64,000 nt of DNA from Solirubrobacter deserti (lineage in GTDB: Bacteria; Actinomycetota; Thermoleophilia; Solirubrobacterales; Solirubrobacteraceae): the NCBI RefSeq assembly GCF_027587175.1, contig NZ_JAPCID010000006.1, positions 124,001 to 188,000 on the forward strand, written 5' to 3'. The notes beneath the pieces are model-generated. The model saw only the letters and a program-made list of their open reading frames with translations, was not told where the DNA came from and made no database searches. The translations under genes were made by a program, and so were the position numbers. Positions 3,663 to 20,541 of the stretch are shown here, in pieces; the stretch's first letter is position 1; each line of letters begins with the position of its first letter.

Positions 3663-4018
3663 GGCAGGTGCGGCGGGGCCGACATGACCTCCACGCGGTG
3701 GCCGGCGGGGTCGCGCACGAACGTCCGCGGCGCGTCCCACGCGTTCGAGCCCTCGGTCAGCTCGTAGCCGGCTTCGGTGAGCGCCCGCAGGACGGCCTCG
3801 TAGTCGGGCGCGACGATCGCGACGTGCCCCTCGCGCGCGGGGCGCGACGGATCGTCGCTGGGCGCGTAGTGGATCTGCGTGCCCTCGCGCTCGACCCACG
3901 TGTAGCGGTCGCGCAGCATCGGCGGCGGGACCATCTCGGTGAACCCGAGCAGCGCCCAGAACGCGACGCAGTCGGCGACCTGGTCGGGGGCGATCTCGAG
4001 CGTGACGTGTTGCAGCAC
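3647..4018 (-). CDS. VOC (glyoxalase/bleomycin-resistance) family protein
   Basis: 123 residues with the two beta-alpha-beta-beta-beta halves of the vicinal-oxygen-chelate fold: the start LQHVTLEIAPDQ and the C-terminal FVRDPAGHRVEVMS are typical. The residues that usually bind metal (His4 and Glu near the C-terminus) are plausible, but the substrate is unknown. The start is GTG 4018, supported by a TACGCT hexamer (minus strand, 4026-4031) exactly 7 nt upstream, which suggests a leaderless transcript. The 3' end overlaps the histidine kinase, so both are probably made from one mRNA. Confidence 0.8.
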   Translation of the reverse strand: MLQHVTLEIAPDQVADCVAFWALLGFTEMVPPPMLRDRYTWVEREGTQIHYAPSDDPSRPAREGHVAIVAPDYEAVLRALTEAGYELTEGSNAWDAPRTFVRDPAGHRVEVMSAPPHLPWPGE

Positions 4019-4054
4019 GGCGCGGAGCGTACTCCGCGCCGTGTGCGAGCGCCC

Positions 4055-5677
4055 TCAGCGCTTCAGCAGCGCACGGACGGAGACCTTCTGGCTCGCCAAC
4101 TCGAGCTTGAAGCTCGTGGCGCGCCGCGGGAGTCGCGTGCGGGGCTTGAGCCTGACCGCCACGGTCTGGCCGGCGCGCGCGTTGAATGCCTTCGACGCGA
4201 GCATCGTCTTACCGCGCCGGAGCGTGAGCCGGTCGGCGCACGGGCCGCCCGTGCAGCGTGCGGTGACGACGACGGCGGTGCCCTTGACGCGCTGGCTGCG
4301 GATTGTCAGCCGGCCGGCTGACGTCTTCGTCGGCGTCGGGGTGGCCGTGGGCACGGGCGCGACCACCGCAGCGGGCTCCTGCGGCGCCGGGCCGGGATCG
4401 CCGATCGGTTCGGGGGTGACGATGCCGGGCACTGTCACCGCATCCGGGGTGGGCTCCGGGTCGACGGGGGTCTCAGGGCTCGGGTGCCCATAGGTGGCCT
4501 CGGCCGGGGACCACGACGCGTCGGAGCTGACCTCGGCGTCGCTGCTGGACTCGGGGTCGGGCGGGCCCACGGTCGGGACCAGCCGTTCCGCCCAGCGGCT
4601 GCTGTCTGAGCCCCCGACGGCGAGCACGCTGCCGTCCGACAGGCGCGCCGCGCTGACGTCGCCGCGCGCGACGGATAGGGAGCCCAGCGTGGTCCAGGTG
4701 TTCGTCGCCGGGTCGAAGCGCTCGGTGACCGCGGTGCCGCCGCCGAGCACGAGCGCGGAGCCGTCCGTCAGCCGCACGGAGACCGAGCCCTCCCCGTGCG
4801 CCGCGGCCATGTCGGGCGCGTCGGACCACGTGTTCGTCGCCGGGTCGTAGATCTCGGCCGAGTCAAGCGCCGGATGGGTCAGCGCGCCGGCCGCGTCGCG
4901 GTAGTGGAAGCCGCCGGAGACCAGCACGCGACCGTCGCTGAGCGTCACCGCCGTCGCGCCGACGCGCGGCACGCGCATGTCCGCGACGGGCGTCCAGCGG
5001 TTGGTCTTCGGGCTGTAGATGTCCGCGTTCGCCACCTCACGGGTGAAGCCGCCACCCGCCGCCAGCACGCGCCCGTCCTTGAGCCGCGCGACGGCGGGGT
5101 ACTGGCGATACCGCAGGCTGGGACCGGTGACCCTCCACGTGTTGGTGACCGGGTTCCACGTCTCGGCCATCGCGTTGATGAAGTTGATCGCGCCGCCGAC
5201 GGCCAAGACGCGGCCGTCCGCGAGCACCACGGACCGGTGACCGACCCGGGTCTGCAGGGGCGAGCCGGCGGCGGACCAGTCGCCGGTCGCGGGATCGAAG
5301 ACCTCGCCTCCCTGACTCAGGTAGTAGCCGTCGTGCAGCCGTTCACCGCCGGAGACGAGCACGCGTCCGTCCGGCAGCGTGACCGCCGTCGCGGTCGCGC
5401 GCCGGTCCTGCAGCCCGTGGGCCGCCGACCAGGTCTTCGTCGCCGCGTCGTACCGTGCGGCGGCGGTGAGGGCGGCGCCGGTGCCGGTCCAGCCGCCGAT
5501 CAGCAACGCGTCACCGTTCGGGAGCGCAGCGAGCGCCGCGCGTTCGAGCGGCTCGGCGATCTGGCCGGCAGGCGCCCACACATTGTCTGGCGTCTGCGCG
5601 TGGGCGGTGGCGGCAGGGACGACCAGCGCCATAGCCGCGAGAAGGAGGGTGCGTCCGTGCATGGATTGGCTGACCAT
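4055..5677 (-). CDS. Secreted Kelch-repeat protein
   Basis: 540 residues. A Sec signal peptide ends near AHA-Q (residue ~28). It is followed by about seven Kelch-type blades (~35-365), recognisable from recurring 'DGRVLVSGG' and 'YDPATNTWS' segments, which would fold into a beta-propeller. Then comes a Pro/Glu/Thr-rich linker (~370-430) and a C-terminal beta-rich domain with a Cys pair (CTGGPC) like the Ig-type domains of other secreted proteins in this window. Translation could start at the ATG at 5677 or at an internal ATG at 5662; the latter gives the more conventional signal peptide. Function is unknown; Kelch propellers usually bind proteins or carbohydrates. Confidence 0.85.
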   Translation of the reverse strand: MVSQSMHGRTLLLAAMALVVPAATAHAQTPDNVWAPAGQIAEPLERAALAALPNGDALLIGGWTGTGAALTAAARYDAATKTWSAAHGLQDRRATATAVTLPDGRVLVSGGERLHDGYYLSQGGEVFDPATGDWSAAGSPLQTRVGHRSVVLADGRVLAVGGAINFINAMAETWNPVTNTWRVTGPSLRYRQYPAVARLKDGRVLAAGGGFTREVANADIYSPKTNRWTPVADMRVPRVGATAVTLSDGRVLVSGGFHYRDAAGALTHPALDSAEIYDPATNTWSDAPDMAAAHGEGSVSVRLTDGSALVLGGGTAVTERFDPATNTWTTLGSLSVARGDVSAARLSDGSVLAVGGSDSSRWAERLVPTVGPPDPESSSDAEVSSDASWSPAEATYGHPSPETPVDPEPTPDAVTVPGIVTPEPIGDPGPAPQEPAAVVAPVPTATPTPTKTSAGRLTIRSQRVKGTAVVVTARCTGGPCADRLTLRRGKTMLASKAFNARAGQTVAVRLKPRTRLPRRATSFKLELASQKVSVRALLKR

Positions 5678-16745: not shown

Positions 16746-17099
16746 ATGAGCTCCAAGCGGCGCAAGCAGCAGCACCACTTCCACATCGGCCGCAAGAAGA
16801 AGCGCAAGCGCGACCGCTTCGACAGCGACTGCTGCTGCATCGTGGGCGAGGTGTTCGACGGCCCGTGCTTCGTCGCGACCGCCGCGCACGGCAGCGCGGC
16901 GGCCGAGCCGGTCCGGACGCTGCGCGCATACCGCGATCAGCGGCTCGCGCGCAGCTATCCAGGGCGCGTGTTCACGAAGGTCTACTACCGCTACGGCCGC
17001 TACGGCGCGCGCTTGCTCCGCGCCTTCCCGGTGTTCAGGCCGCTCGTGCGGCTCGCGTTGCGCCCGCTCGTGGCCTACGCGCGCACGCGGGTTCGCTAG
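16746..17099 (+). CDS. CFI-box-CTERM domain protein
   Basis: 117 residues. A very basic N-terminus (Lys/Arg/His-rich, with CCC at ~35-37) precedes the CFI-box: CFVATAAHGSAAAEPVRTLRAY at ~54-75, followed by a helical hydrophobic tail ending PLVAYARTRVR. In this family the box is normally a C-terminal tag on larger proteins, so a small protein consisting of almost nothing else is notable. Start ATG lies 6 nt after TAGGAT. Role unknown. Confidence 0.7.
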   Translation: MSSKRRKQQHHFHIGRKKKRKRDRFDSDCCCIVGEVFDGPCFVATAAHGSAAAEPVRTLRAYRDQRLARSYPGRVFTKVYYRYGRYGARLLRAFPVFRPLVRLALRPLVAYARTRVR

Positions 17100-18154
17100 C
17101 GCGCTTCCAGCACCATGTTGAGCGGGGTCTCGGCCACGCGCCGCACCTGCTCGAAGCCGGCCTCGCGCAGGACCGCCGCGATCGCGGCCTCGCCGGCCTG
17201 CGTGCCAAGCCCGGCGCGGCCCGGCTGGGACAGCGAGCCCGGGGTGCAGCACATGGTCGAGAAGCCGTAGTACATGCGCCCGACCGGGTTCAGGTTGTCC
17301 TCGACCGTGTCGCCCGCGACCGGCTCCACGAGCACGCAGGTGCCGCCCGGCGCGAGCGCGGCGCGCGCCTGGCGGGCCGCGGCGAGCGGGTCGCCGAGGT
17401 CGTGGAAGGAGTCGAAGAACGCGACCACGTCGAAGCCGGTGCCCGTGTAGTCGGCGGCGCCGGCGACCTCGAACGTGACGCGGTCGGCGACCCCGGCGTG
17501 CTCGGCCCGGCGCCGCGCGATCTCGATCGAGCCCGCGTGGTAGTCGAACCCGACGAAGCGCGAGGCGGGGTAGGCCTGCGCGAGCAGGATGGTTGAGGCG
17601 CCGTGGCCGCAGCCGACGTCGGCGACGTACGCACCCGCCTCGAGCTTGTCCACGACGCCGTCGAGCGCCGGCAGCCACTCGGCCACCAGGTGCGTGCGGT
17701 ACGCGACCGCGAACGCGCGCTCGGTGCCGTGCCAGAGGTCGTGCGAGTGCTCGTGCCAGCCGACGCCGCCGCCGTCGACGAAGCGCTCGGCCAGCGCCTT
17801 GCGCACGCCGACGACGGCGTTCGCGGACTGGAACGAGCCCGTCGCCAGGAACGGCGAGGTCTCGTCCGCCAGCACGAGCGCATGCTCGAGCGGCAGGGAG
17901 TAGCGGCCGTCGGCGTACTCGACGTAGCCGGACGCGGCCTGGACGTTGAGCCACTCGCGCACGTAGCGCTCCAGCGTGCCCGTGCGGCTCGCCAGCTCGG
18001 CGGGGGAGACCGGCTCGCCGTCGGCCATCGCGCGGTACAGGCCCAGCTCGTCGCCGAGCGTGACCAGCGCGACGTTCATGGCCGCGCCGATCTCGGTGGC
18101 CACGAGCCCGAAGAACGCCTCGAGCTTGGCCTCGTCGATGTTCGTCGTGGCCAT
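17096..18154 (-). CDS. Class I SAM-dependent methyltransferase with N-terminal winged helix
   Basis: 352 residues. Residues ~10-100 form a winged-helix dimerisation/substrate domain (LGLYRAMADGEPVSPAELASRTGTLERYVREWL) like that of Rv2258c-type methyltransferases. The Rossmann domain has motif I VADVGCGHGASTI, motif II FVGFDYHAGSIEIA, and VVAFFDSFHDLGDP. These enzymes are expected to methylate small molecules. The start at ATG 18154 lies 2 nt after the stop of the small secreted protein gene. Its 3' end overlaps the CFI-box gene's stop region by 4 nt (convergent). Confidence 0.88.
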   Translation of the reverse strand: MATTNIDEAKLEAFFGLVATEIGAAMNVALVTLGDELGLYRAMADGEPVSPAELASRTGTLERYVREWLNVQAASGYVEYADGRYSLPLEHALVLADETSPFLATGSFQSANAVVGVRKALAERFVDGGGVGWHEHSHDLWHGTERAFAVAYRTHLVAEWLPALDGVVDKLEAGAYVADVGCGHGASTILLAQAYPASRFVGFDYHAGSIEIARRRAEHAGVADRVTFEVAGAADYTGTGFDVVAFFDSFHDLGDPLAAARQARAALAPGGTCVLVEPVAGDTVEDNLNPVGRMYYGFSTMCCTPGSLSQPGRAGLGTQAGEAAIAAVLREAGFEQVRRVAETPLNMVLEAR

Positions 18155-18156
18155 GC

Positions 18157-18381
18157 TCAGGCCTCGCACTGGCGGTAGTACTTGGGCCACGCGTACTCGT
18201 TCCACCAGTACGACGCGGCCTCCCAGCCGAAGAACCGCTCGATGATGCGGAACTCGCGCTCGATGCGCTCCAGCTTGCGGTCGCAGCGGTCGGGATGAGC
18301 GGCCATGGCGGGCGACGCGACACCCAGGGTCGCGGTCGCGATCAGGGAGGCGAGGACGGCTCGCCGGCGATTCCGTGTCAT
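18157..18381 (-). CDS. Small secreted protein
   Basis: 74 residues from ATG 18381 (an ATG at 18390 is possible). It has an arginine-rich N-terminus, a hydrophobic signal sequence ending near PAMAA, and a ~45-residue mature part rich in Arg, Glu, Trp and Tyr with two Cys (DRCDRKLERIE and YYRQCEA). Lies directly upstream of the methyltransferase. No recognisable family. Confidence 0.55.
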   Translation of the reverse strand: MTRNRRRAVLASLIATATLGVASPAMAAHPDRCDRKLERIEREFRIIERFFGWEAASYWWNEYAWPKYYRQCEA

Positions 18382-18478
18382 GCCGAGCATGGTCGGTCCG
18401 CGCGGCCCGCGCCTCGTGGCGAGTTCCTTAGCGCTTTCTGAGCGAGGTTCGGGGAACCGCCGCCAACTCGGGAGCCAG

Positions 18479-18520: not shown

Positions 18521-18787
18521 ATGAACCTCTACCTCGTCTCCCGCCGCCGCGCCTGGTTGTCCGAGGAGGAGCTCGCCGCCACCGCCGACTGCACGCCCGC
18601 CGTGCTCGGCATCTTCGACGGCGCCGTCCGCTGGGTGCGTTCCTACGTCTTCGAGGAGGCCGACGGCGCGTTCAGCGCCGACTGCGTCTACGAGGCCGAG
18701 AGCGTCGAGCGGCTGGAGGAGTACTTCGACGCGATGATGCTGCCGGCGGACGAGATCCGGCAGGTCGACCGGTTCGCGGCGGCGTGA
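18521..18787 (+). CDS. DUF4242-family (ferredoxin-like fold) protein
   Basis: 88 residues beginning MNLYLVSRRRAWLSEEELAATA, with a central strand WVRSYVFEEADGAFSADCVYEAESVERLEEYF. This fits the DUF4242/SCO4226-like fold, members of which can bind nickel. ATG 18521 lies 8 nt after TAGCGT. Its TGA overlaps the GTG of the downstream ATPase/regulator (GTGA), so the two proteins are produced in step. A sensory or ligand-binding role for the regulator is a reasonable guess. Confidence 0.75.
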   Translation: MNLYLVSRRRAWLSEEELAATADCTPAVLGIFDGAVRWVRSYVFEEADGAFSADCVYEAESVERLEEYFDAMMLPADEIRQVDRFAAA

Positions 18788-20541
18788 ACTTCGGGGCGCT
18801 GCTGGCCAAGCGCGCGCTGATCGGCCGCGACGACGAGCTGGCCGCGCTGCGCACCCTCCACGAGCCCGGAGGCCCGCTGGTGGCGGTCGTCCACGGCGTC
18901 GCCGGCTCGGGCAAGTCGGCGCTGATCCGGGCGTTCGCTGCCGAGCACGAGCACGCGACGATCGTCGACGGCCGCGCGATCGAGCCGACGCCGGCGGGGT
19001 TCGAGCAGGCCGCCGGGCGCCATCCGCGGCTCCTCGTCATCGACACCTTCGAGCGCCTGCGCCTGCTCGACGACTGGCTGCGCCACACCTACTTCCCGTC
19101 GCTGCCCGCGGACACCCGGGTCGTGATCGCCGCGCGCGACGCGCCGGGCGCCGTCTGGCGTGCGACGTTCGGCGAGTACCTGCGCGTGATCCCGCTCGGC
19201 CCGCTCGCGCCCGCCGACGCCGCCGCGGTGCTCGAGGGCGTCGGCTTGGACCCGCAGCAGGCCGTCGAAGTCAACCGCTTCGTACGGGGCCACCCGCTGT
19301 CGTTGCAGCTCGCGGCGTCCGCGGTCAAGGAGCATCCGGACGCGGTCATCCCGACCGTCACGCAGGAGCTCGCCGCGCTCTACCTCGACGGCCTCGACCC
19401 GGAGACGCGAGCCGCCCTGGACCGCGCGTGCGTCCTGCGCCGCGTCACGCGCAGCCTGCTGCCCGACGGGTTCGACCGGCTCGCCACGCTGCCGTTCGTC
19501 GAGCTCACCCCCGAGGGCCTGGTCATCCACGACACCGTGCGCGAGGCCGTCTCCGCGCTGCTGAAGGCCACCGATCCCGTCCGCCACCGCGAGCACCGTG
19601 CCGCGGCCTGGCGCCAGATCCGCCACGAGCTCCCGGACGGCGGCTGGGCCTCGATCGCGGACATGATCGCGCTCGTCGAGGAGCCGCTCGTGCGCGAGGC
19701 GTTCTTCCCGAGCGCCGTCCAGCACTACGCGGTCGAGACGGCCCGGCCGAGCGACCGCGACGCGATCCTGAAGATCGTCGCCCGTCACCATCCTGGGCCG
19801 ACGACGGCGCTGCTCAGCGACTGGTGGGACGCCGTCCCCGACGCCTTCCGCGTCGCGCGCGCCCCGCGCGGGACCGTCGTCGCGTTCGCGGTCCTGTGCG
19901 ACCTGCGCCGGATCCCCCAGGGCCTGTTCCTGCGCGACCCGGTCTGCCAGGCCTGGCGGGCGCACCTGCGCGCGCACCCCGTGCCGAAGGGCCAGCGCGT
20001 CCTCGCGGCGCGTGTCGCGCTCGCCCACGGCACGGGCTCGGCGCCGTCGCCGTGCTTCAGCGCACTGCTGCGCGACGTCGAGCGCGAGCGGCTGGAGGGC
20101 GTGGTCCGGCGCGTCTACGCCGTCTCCGGCGGCGCCGAGCTCGATGAGCAACTGGAGCCGCTCGGCTACCTGCCGATCGACGGCGGCGCGACGGTCTGCG
20201 ACCTGGGCGCGGAGTCCGTCGCGGGCTGGCTGTCGGAACTGGCCGCGCGCGACCTCCCGGTGCGGAAGACCGCGCTCGACCCCGAGGCGCGCGAGCTCAC
20301 GCTGGACGGGCGGACCGTCGCGCTCACGAAGCTCGAATGTGCGGTCCTGCGCTACCTGCAGGAGCGTCAGGGCCAGGTCGTCCCGCGGGCGGCCCTGCTT
20401 CACGACGTCTGGGGCTACGAGTGGGCCGGCGGCGCGAACGCCGTCGACGTGGCGATCTGCGGCCTGCGGCGCAAGCTCGGCGAGCACGCCAAGCGCCTGG
20501 AGACCGTGCGGGGCGTCGGGTTCCGGATGGTGCCGCTCTAA
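18784..20541 (+). CDS. ATPase with C-terminal OmpR-type winged-helix DNA-binding domain
   Basis: 585 residues. An N-terminal STAND/AAA-type NTPase has Walker A G38-VAGSGK44-S and a Walker B-like LLVIDTFE (~83-90). The middle (~230-490) is helical and without a recognised repeat. Residues ~490-585 are a Trans_reg_C winged helix: LDPEARELTLDGRTVALTK, then RAALLHDVWGYEW and VDVAICGLRRKLGEHAKRLETVRGVGFRM. In AfsR/SARP regulators this DNA-binding domain is N-terminal; here it is C-terminal. GTG start overlaps the DUF4242 stop. Probably an ATP-switched transcription regulator of unknown regulon. Confidence 0.85.
   Translation: MNFGALLAKRALIGRDDELAALRTLHEPGGPLVAVVHGVAGSGKSALIRAFAAEHEHATIVDGRAIEPTPAGFEQAAGRHPRLLVIDTFERLRLLDDWLRHTYFPSLPADTRVVIAARDAPGAVWRATFGEYLRVIPLGPLAPADAAAVLEGVGLDPQQAVEVNRFVRGHPLSLQLAASAVKEHPDAVIPTVTQELAALYLDGLDPETRAALDRACVLRRVTRSLLPDGFDRLATLPFVELTPEGLVIHDTVREAVSALLKATDPVRHREHRAAAWRQIRHELPDGGWASIADMIALVEEPLVREAFFPSAVQHYAVETARPSDRDAILKIVARHHPGPTTALLSDWWDAVPDAFRVARAPRGTVVAFAVLCDLRRIPQGLFLRDPVCQAWRAHLRAHPVPKGQRVLAARVALAHGTGSAPSPCFSALLRDVERERLEGVVRRVYAVSGGAELDEQLEPLGYLPIDGGATVCDLGAESVAGWLSELAARDLPVRKTALDPEARELTLDGRTVALTKLECAVLRYLQERQGQVVPRAALLHDVWGYEWAGGANAVDVAICGLRRKLGEHAKRLETVRGVGFRMVPL

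What the first reader, a model, noticed from the sequence alone, without database searches (positions are those of the whole stretch)
18521..20541. DUF4242 protein translationally coupled to an ATPase with a C-terminal OmpR-type winged helix
A GTGA overlap ties an 88-residue DUF4242 protein to a 585-residue regulator with an N-terminal P-loop ATPase and a C-terminal Trans_reg_C domain, the reverse of the AfsR/SARP order. Two palindromes lie in the leader. A small ligand- or metal-binding protein feeding an ATP-switched regulator would be a little-described one-operon sensing system.
Basis: partly seen in the sequence, partly recalled or inferred. Interest (0 to 1): 0.55.

Follow-up and report, generated by a model that had tools for sequence, protein, structure and literature searches.

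The report
Small partner of ATP-switch gene regulators
In the soil bacterium Solirubrobacter a small protein of unknown role is made together with an ATP-driven gene switch, and relatives of that small protein sit beside many other ATP-driven gene switches, which suggests, but does not prove, that it helps to run them.

Summary
In detail: an 88-residue DUF4242 (PF14026) gene overlaps by 4 nt a 585-residue regulator with an N-terminal P-loop ATPase and a C-terminal Trans_reg_C domain. The ATPase core matches MalT best (Z 17.2): a STAND-type regulator with an OmpR-type DNA-binding domain. The exact pair is kept, with the overlap, in 4 of 6 Solirubrobacter genomes and was found nowhere else; distant homologues of this ATPase have other small neighbours (YdhR, SnoaL). 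Seen from the other side the pairing is recurrent: 27 of 60 DUF4242 genes in the class have an AAA_16 ATPase regulator within 640 nt, 26 on the same strand, none farther off; 9 of 40 outside the class, three AfsR-type at 13-15 nt; an ABM control gave 1 of 30. Pairing changes at least 12 times on the DUF4242 tree. Some DUF4242 proteins are fused to a cyclase domain. Likely mechanism, inferred: DUF4242 is a detachable partner of the ATP switch, as MalY is of MalT. A rival nearly as good: it is an enzyme that the switch controls. Nickel sensing is unlikely: this copy has no histidine.

The parts
18521..18787 (+). DUF4242 / PF14026 SCO4226-like protein, 88 aa, predicted ferredoxin-like fold; no histidine; Cys24 and Cys55 kept in 4 of 4 Solirubrobacter orthologues
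   Evidence: Pfam; alignment; model; best structural match 4oi6 (SCO4226) Z 8.6
18784..20541 (+). STAND-type ATPase with C-terminal OmpR/PhoB-type winged helix, 585 aa, GTG start overlapping the DUF4242 stop
   Evidence: Pfam; model of residues 1-280; MalT 8bob_C Z 17.2
18784..18787 (+). GTGA stop/start overlap (ATGA in the three orthologues)
   Evidence: orthologues
18895..18918 (+). Walker A stretch of the regulator (GVAGSGKS, residues 38-45; G38, A40, G41, G43, K44, S45 invariant in five full-length homologues)
   Evidence: alignment A1; motif name recalled
19639..20268 (+). middle region of the regulator (about residues 286-495), unassigned, shared by the wider family; no clear Pfam or PDB sequence match
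   Evidence: not modelled with confidence
20308..20529 (+). Trans_reg_C winged helix, residues 509-582
   Evidence: solved relatives of the OmpR/PhoB type
18427..18453 (.). conserved leader block CTTAGCGCTTTCTGAGCGAGGTTCGGG, candidate operator with a CTnAGCG direct repeat at 11 nt (6 of 7 here, exact in G003)
   Evidence: not significant in the window alone (293 of 1000 shuffles)
18157..18390 (-). divergent small ORF, 77 aa, with a signal-peptide-like start (my reading), kept in 3 other Solirubrobacter genomes (83, 69, 65%)
17096..18154 (-). divergent SAM-methyltransferase-fold protein with Rv2258c-like N-terminal winged helix; likely target; same divergent place in G157
   Evidence: Pfam; synteny; closest solved chains TnmJ 8g5s and 5f8c

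Best explanation
An operon of a small ferredoxin-like protein (DUF4242) and a STAND transcription regulator. Shown: two overlapping genes, STAND-type ATPase core, OmpR-type DNA-binding domain, conservation in the genus, and a recurrent linkage of DUF4242 genes to ATPase regulators of several architectures. Inferred: the regulator rests in an ADP-bound closed form; the DUF4242 dimer, made in matched supply through the overlap, binds it and either holds it inactive, as MalY holds MalT, or hands on a signal; on the signal the ATPase takes ATP, oligomerises and binds the 18427-18453 block through its winged helices, changing its own operon and the divergent small-protein and methyltransferase genes.
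For: Overlap of 4 nt in 4 of 4 orthologous pairs. STAND core: MalT Z 17.2, STAND-TPR protein 6mfv Z 15.5, Apaf-1 Z 14.4. DUF4242 next to AAA_16 ATPase regulators in 27 of 60 class loci, all within 640 nt, 26 same strand, 0 farther; 9 of 40 phylum loci near, 5 hits farther; ABM control 1 of 30 against 29 of 60 and 15 of 40 by one method. At least 12 changes paired/unpaired on a 104-row tree. In the genus 8 of 8 DUF4242 genes examined (of 12 found) lie next to an ATPase regulator. Partners include LuxR-type (GerE in 24 of 27) and AfsR-type regulators at 13-15 nt. DUF4242 fused to Guanylate_cyc in 3 of 3 scanned long versions. Precedent of a STAND regulator held by a partner protein: MalY-MalT, abstract of PMC10427625.
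Against: No interaction was tested or modelled. 33 of 60 class loci and 31 of 40 phylum loci have no such ATPase within 700 nt by the first method. Homologues of this very ATPase outside the genus have YdhR or SnoaL neighbours instead, which fits an enzyme slot as well as a partner slot. SCO4226, the one characterised member that I found, sits beside phoU-phoRP (PMC4991794, passages). The leader repeat is not significant in the window itself.
Confidence: 0.42

Rival explanations
1. DUF4242 is a small enzyme or ligand carrier that the regulator controls; it shares the operon because it is a target, and it does not act on the ATPase.
For: In relatives of this regulator the neighbouring slot holds enzyme-type families: ydhR (G049, G157), SnoaL (G768, G293), CMD (G695), and the methyltransferase-fold gene recurs beside ATPase or SARP regulators in 17 of 26 loci. 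DUF4242 and YdhR are both small ferredoxin-like folds (SCO4226 fold; YdhR fold recalled).
Against: The same small family recurs with different regulators in many clades and is fused to a cyclase domain, more like a signalling module; I know of no catalytic residues for it.
Confidence: 0.37
2. A metal (nickel) sensor: DUF4242 binds Ni and reports it to the regulator.
For: SCO4226 binds four Ni per dimer (PMC4186839, abstract and passages).
Against: The paper gives Kd 10 uM and solvent-exposed sites; the one complete conserved site is Asp43, Ser46, His76, and P0001 holds no histidine at all.
Confidence: 0.05
3. Neutral neighbourhood: DUF4242 and ATPase regulators are both common in these genomes and meet by chance or by shared horizontal transfer.
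For: The window genome has 106 AAA_16 places at E up to 0.001.
Against: All 27 class hits lie within 640 nt and none in the remaining 351 kb searched; ABM control 1 of 30; at least 12 changes on the tree.
Confidence: 0.06

Closest known systems
MalT (E. coli STAND transcription activator) with its partner proteins MalY, Aes, MalK
   Same: STAND ATPase core (Z 17.2 to 8bob_C); transcription regulator; a protein partner that holds it (PMC10427625 abstract; Aes and MalK recalled)
   Different: MalT ends in a LuxR-type (GerE) domain after a repeat sensor (recalled); here the output is Trans_reg_C and the middle region is unassigned; MalY is a PLP enzyme (recalled), not a ferredoxin-like protein
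AfsR / SARP regulators
   Same: ATPase plus OmpR-type winged helix in one chain; three DUF4242 genes elsewhere lie 13-15 nt after an AfsR-type regulator
   Different: Here the winged helix is at the C-terminus and there is no BTAD domain
SCO4226 of Streptomyces coelicolor (PDB 4OI3, 4OI6)
   Same: same Pfam family; model matches 4oi6 at Z 8.6, 80 residues, 2.8 A
   Different: No histidine in the window protein; SCO4226 lies beside phoU-phoRP
LuxR-type large ATPase regulators (LAL type, name recalled)
   Same: AAA_16 ATPase regulators; commonest DUF4242 neighbours (27 of 27 AAA_16, 24 of 27 GerE)
   Different: mostly 900-1000 residues with GerE output, not a 585-residue chain with Trans_reg_C

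Membership tests
PF14026 SCO4226-like (DUF4242) | profile match above the curated cut-off | tested here: met
   35.2 bits, cut-off 28.5
PF14026 SCO4226-like (DUF4242) | ferredoxin-like fold | tested here: met
   model strand-helix-strand-strand-helix-strand, pLDDT 69 from 2 sequences; 4oi6 best, Z 8.6
nickel-binding protein of the SCO4226 kind | Ni-1 ligands Asp43, Ser46, His76 | tested here: not met
   P0001 has no histidine; ligands from PMC4186839 passages
STAND NTPase | P-loop core followed by helical and winged-helix subdomains as in MalT/Apaf-1 | tested here: met
   residues 4-309 to MalT, 285 aligned, Z 17.2, rmsd 5.9; Walker A and GHP 169-171 invariant in 5
STAND NTPase | ADP/ATP switch and inducer-driven oligomerisation | not testable with these tools
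   needs protein
OmpR/PhoB-type DNA-binding domain | Trans_reg_C match | tested here: met
   70.2 bits; OmpR/PhoB-type chains best in the PDB
two-component response regulator | receiver domain | tested here: not met
   no receiver among the Pfam matches up to E 1
AfsR/SARP | N-terminal winged helix and BTAD domain | tested here: not met
   winged helix at 509-582, no BTAD
MalT / LuxR-type ATPase regulators | C-terminal GerE domain | tested here: not met
   no GerE
GNAT acetyltransferase (middle region) | profile match | tested here: inconclusive
   one of 28 members hits Acetyltransf_18 at E 0.2 only

The most novel reading that the evidence does not exclude
DUF4242 proteins are a general detachable input subunit of ATP-switched signalling proteins in Actinomycetota: encoded beside STAND, LuxR-ATPase and AfsR-type regulators, or fused to a cyclase domain, they bind the ATPase and set its switch, making a two-protein signalling module in which sensor and ATP-driven output are re-paired in evolution.
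Probability: 0.33. Interest if true: 0.75.

Novelty: new variant of a known kind. Interest (0 to 1): 0.56.

Why it matters
DUF4242 has one characterised member that I found, named for weak nickel binding, and no known role. A linkage to ATPase regulators that arose repeatedly gives the family a testable role and offers a clue to how the large ATP-driven regulators of actinobacteria, most without a known inducer (my understanding, not tested here), receive their signals. The window pair is a compact test case: 88 and 585 residues, from overlapping genes.

Tried and rejected
Nickel sensing: rejected for this copy (no histidine). GNAT identity of the middle region, my own first idea: not supported. 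Fold of residues 283-585: model not confident with 3 sequences; nothing claimed. P0001 alone found no solved chain; an 18-row profile found 4oi3 at E 0.0096. The phylum loci with 1.5 kb flanks cannot show an upstream ATPase core and were replaced by stretches of up to 8 kb. Errors corrected: three orthologue rows of A3 were out of frame, redone in A4; the small divergent ORF was first translated in a wrong frame, redone. 4 of the 20 rows of the neutral ATPase model were cut to 5 residues or fewer. The A1 search outside the class is sparse: 396 genomes drawn evenly from the phylum. Selection: the 60 class DUF4242 loci were picked mainly down the score list, with some skipped, before neighbours were looked at; the 40 phylum loci were picked down the list, leaving out class members, after I had seen 1.5 kb flanks of 30 of its hits. 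Row labels of the tree: L209 (regulator cut by the contig end) and L321 (SARP seen by eye) count as unpaired. The methyltransferase count (17 of 26) used the ATPase and the SARP models; by the ATPase model alone it is 15 of 26, and only that model was run on the ABM control. The first survey and the control comparison use different models and flanks, so their counts differ.

Full report
What is there. The DUF4242 gene (18521-18787) and the regulator gene (18784-20541) overlap by GTGA. Pfam gives PF14026 for the first, AAA_16 and Trans_reg_C for the second, all above the curated cut-offs. The genome belongs to Solirubrobacter: the orthologue L075 is from S. taibaiensis and lies on a contig of the same length as that of G004 (106,731 bases), a genome of the window's genus.

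How far the pair goes. Orthologues of the regulator (82-83% identity) occur in 3 of the 5 other genomes of the genus (G001, G003, G004), not in G002 or G005. In all 4 genomes with the gene the DUF4242 gene lies upstream with a 4-nt overlap. Full-length homologues with Trans_reg_C elsewhere are few. In 145 genomes of the family: G049 and G157. In 396 of the phylum: G368 and G571. In 298 of the class: G768 and G293, the latter with a Trans_reg_C match of 25.4 bits on a cut protein, just under the cut-off. None of the five with readable surroundings has DUF4242 next to it; G571 ends at the contig end. G049 has a co-directional ydhR gene upstream (69.4 bits), G157 a divergent ydhR gene (57 bits), G368 a glycosyltransferase-like gene (my reading), G768 and G293 a SnoaL gene downstream. 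Near relatives end otherwise: GerE in G695, Guanylate_cyc in G722. So both the output domain and the small neighbour of this ATPase are exchanged.

The divergent side. The methyltransferase-fold gene 17096-18154 (-) lies divergent from the regulator in 4 of 4 Solirubrobacter genomes (84-89%) and in G157 (58% over the full length), but was not found near the G049 regulator. Its closest solved chains are TnmJ (8g5s, 206.7 bits) and 5f8c (151.4 bits; the Rv2258c name comes from the Pfam domain HTH_65 and from recall). Members of this gene family occur in 42 of 145 genomes of the family; of 26 such loci with 1.5 kb flanks 17 hold an ATPase or SARP regulator. In one more genome (L179) a SARP-like regulator lies divergent from the methyltransferase with a DUF4242 remnant, interrupted by a stop, beyond it. 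A small ORF (18157-18390, -) between the two is kept in three other genomes.

The regulator. The model is confident only for residues 1-280. That part matches MalT (8bob_C, Z 17.2), a STAND-TPR protein (6mfv, Z 15.5) and Apaf-1 (3sfz, Z 14.4). Residues from about 286 to 495 have no clear family match. The C-terminal domain matches solved OmpR/PhoB-type domains.

The DUF4242 protein. It has no histidine, while SCO4226 coordinates nickel through His76 with Asp43 and Ser46, at 10 uM, with solvent-exposed sites (PMC4186839, abstract and passages). Tyr4, Arg8, Trp38, Cys55 and Pro75 are invariant in an 18-row family alignment; Cys24 is kept in the 4 Solirubrobacter orthologues.

The wider linkage. 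PF14026 occurs in 118 of 299 genomes of near relatives. I took 60 of these genes with up to 4 kb on each side. A model built from ATPase regulators of the window genome (20 places taken, none chosen for DUF4242; 16 rows useful) finds an ATPase ORF near 27 of 60: 23 within 140 nt, 4 at 430-632 nt, 26 on the same strand; none in the 351 kb farther out. All 27 are AAA_16 by Pfam and 24 carry GerE. The ATPase gene may precede or follow DUF4242. The second DUF4242 gene of the window genome is one of them (L244). In the genus 12 DUF4242 matches were found; the 8 whose surroundings I read all lie beside an ATPase regulator. Outside the class I took 40 loci: 9 have such an ATPase within 700 nt (one, L324, by an overlapping open frame), against 5 hits farther off; a SARP model adds L305, L310, L311, L314 and L315. 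L328, L332 and L334 have an AfsR-type regulator 13-15 nt upstream; for L328 and L332 Pfam shows Trans_reg_C, BTAD, AAA_16 and TPR. With 1.5 kb flanks and one full-length model the counts are 29 of 60, 15 of 40, and 1 of 30 for the control family ABM in 61 relatives (Fisher 9e-6 and 1e-3). On a tree of 104 DUF4242 proteins (84 columns, about half of the forks unresolved) paired and unpaired need at least 12 changes; the window clade stands apart. In L192, L195 and L204 DUF4242 is fused to Guanylate_cyc; L202 reads alike (not scanned).

The leader. In the alignment of four leaders the block 18427-18453 is nearly invariant. It holds CTnAGCG twice at 11 nt, the spacing known for OmpR/PhoB-type operators (recalled). 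The repeat is exact in G003 (8 of 8; 7 of 1000 shuffles) and another exact 7-mer repeat at 11 nt stands in the G157 intergenic region (19 of 1000), but in the window it is 6 of 7 (293 of 1000), and G049, G768 and G293 show none. The pattern occurs once in the genome. I treat it as a candidate operator only.

Mechanism. A STAND regulator needs a signal; MalT is held by a partner protein (MalY, abstract of PMC10427625). A small protein from an overlapping gene, of a family that recurs beside ATPase regulators, is a good candidate for such a partner. The rival, an enzyme under the regulator's control, explains the exchange for YdhR and SnoaL as well or better; only biochemistry will separate them.

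In print. The held library has DUF4242 in 3 papers and SCO4226 in 6; a search joining nickel-binding protein, LuxR, SARP and operon gave none, and PF14026 gave matches that look like Plasmodium gene identifiers, judged from the listing. I read passages of PMC4186839 and PMC4991794 and the abstract and outline of PMC10427625, not the whole texts. Subscription journals are mostly not held, so a description may exist elsewhere.

Noticed in passing
L192, L195, L204 (DUF4242 at about 4000-4300); L202 by reading: DUF4242 fused to a class III cyclase-like domain (Guanylate_cyc) in genomes of the window's class.
   Followed up: partly
window 17096-18154 (-); L143-L168: The TnmJ/Rv2258c-like methyltransferase-fold family is itself recurrently beside ATPase or SARP regulators (17 of 26 loci).
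   Followed up: partly
L138 (G722): A homologue of the window ATPase ends in a Guanylate_cyc domain instead of a DNA-binding domain.
   Followed up: no
L117/L134 (G648): A further homologue of the regulator is broken across frames (its Trans_reg_C part is in another frame), next to a methyltransferase-like gene.
   Followed up: no
L191, L198, L203: A small ORF of 104-128 residues with a secretion-signal-like start lies between DUF4242 and the ATPase regulator in one DUF4242 clade.
   Followed up: no
L190, L201, L223: Another DUF4242 clade is followed, with a slight overlap, by a gene of 343-373 residues that looks like a flavin dehydrogenase (my reading, not scanned), a different stable partner.
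   Followed up: no
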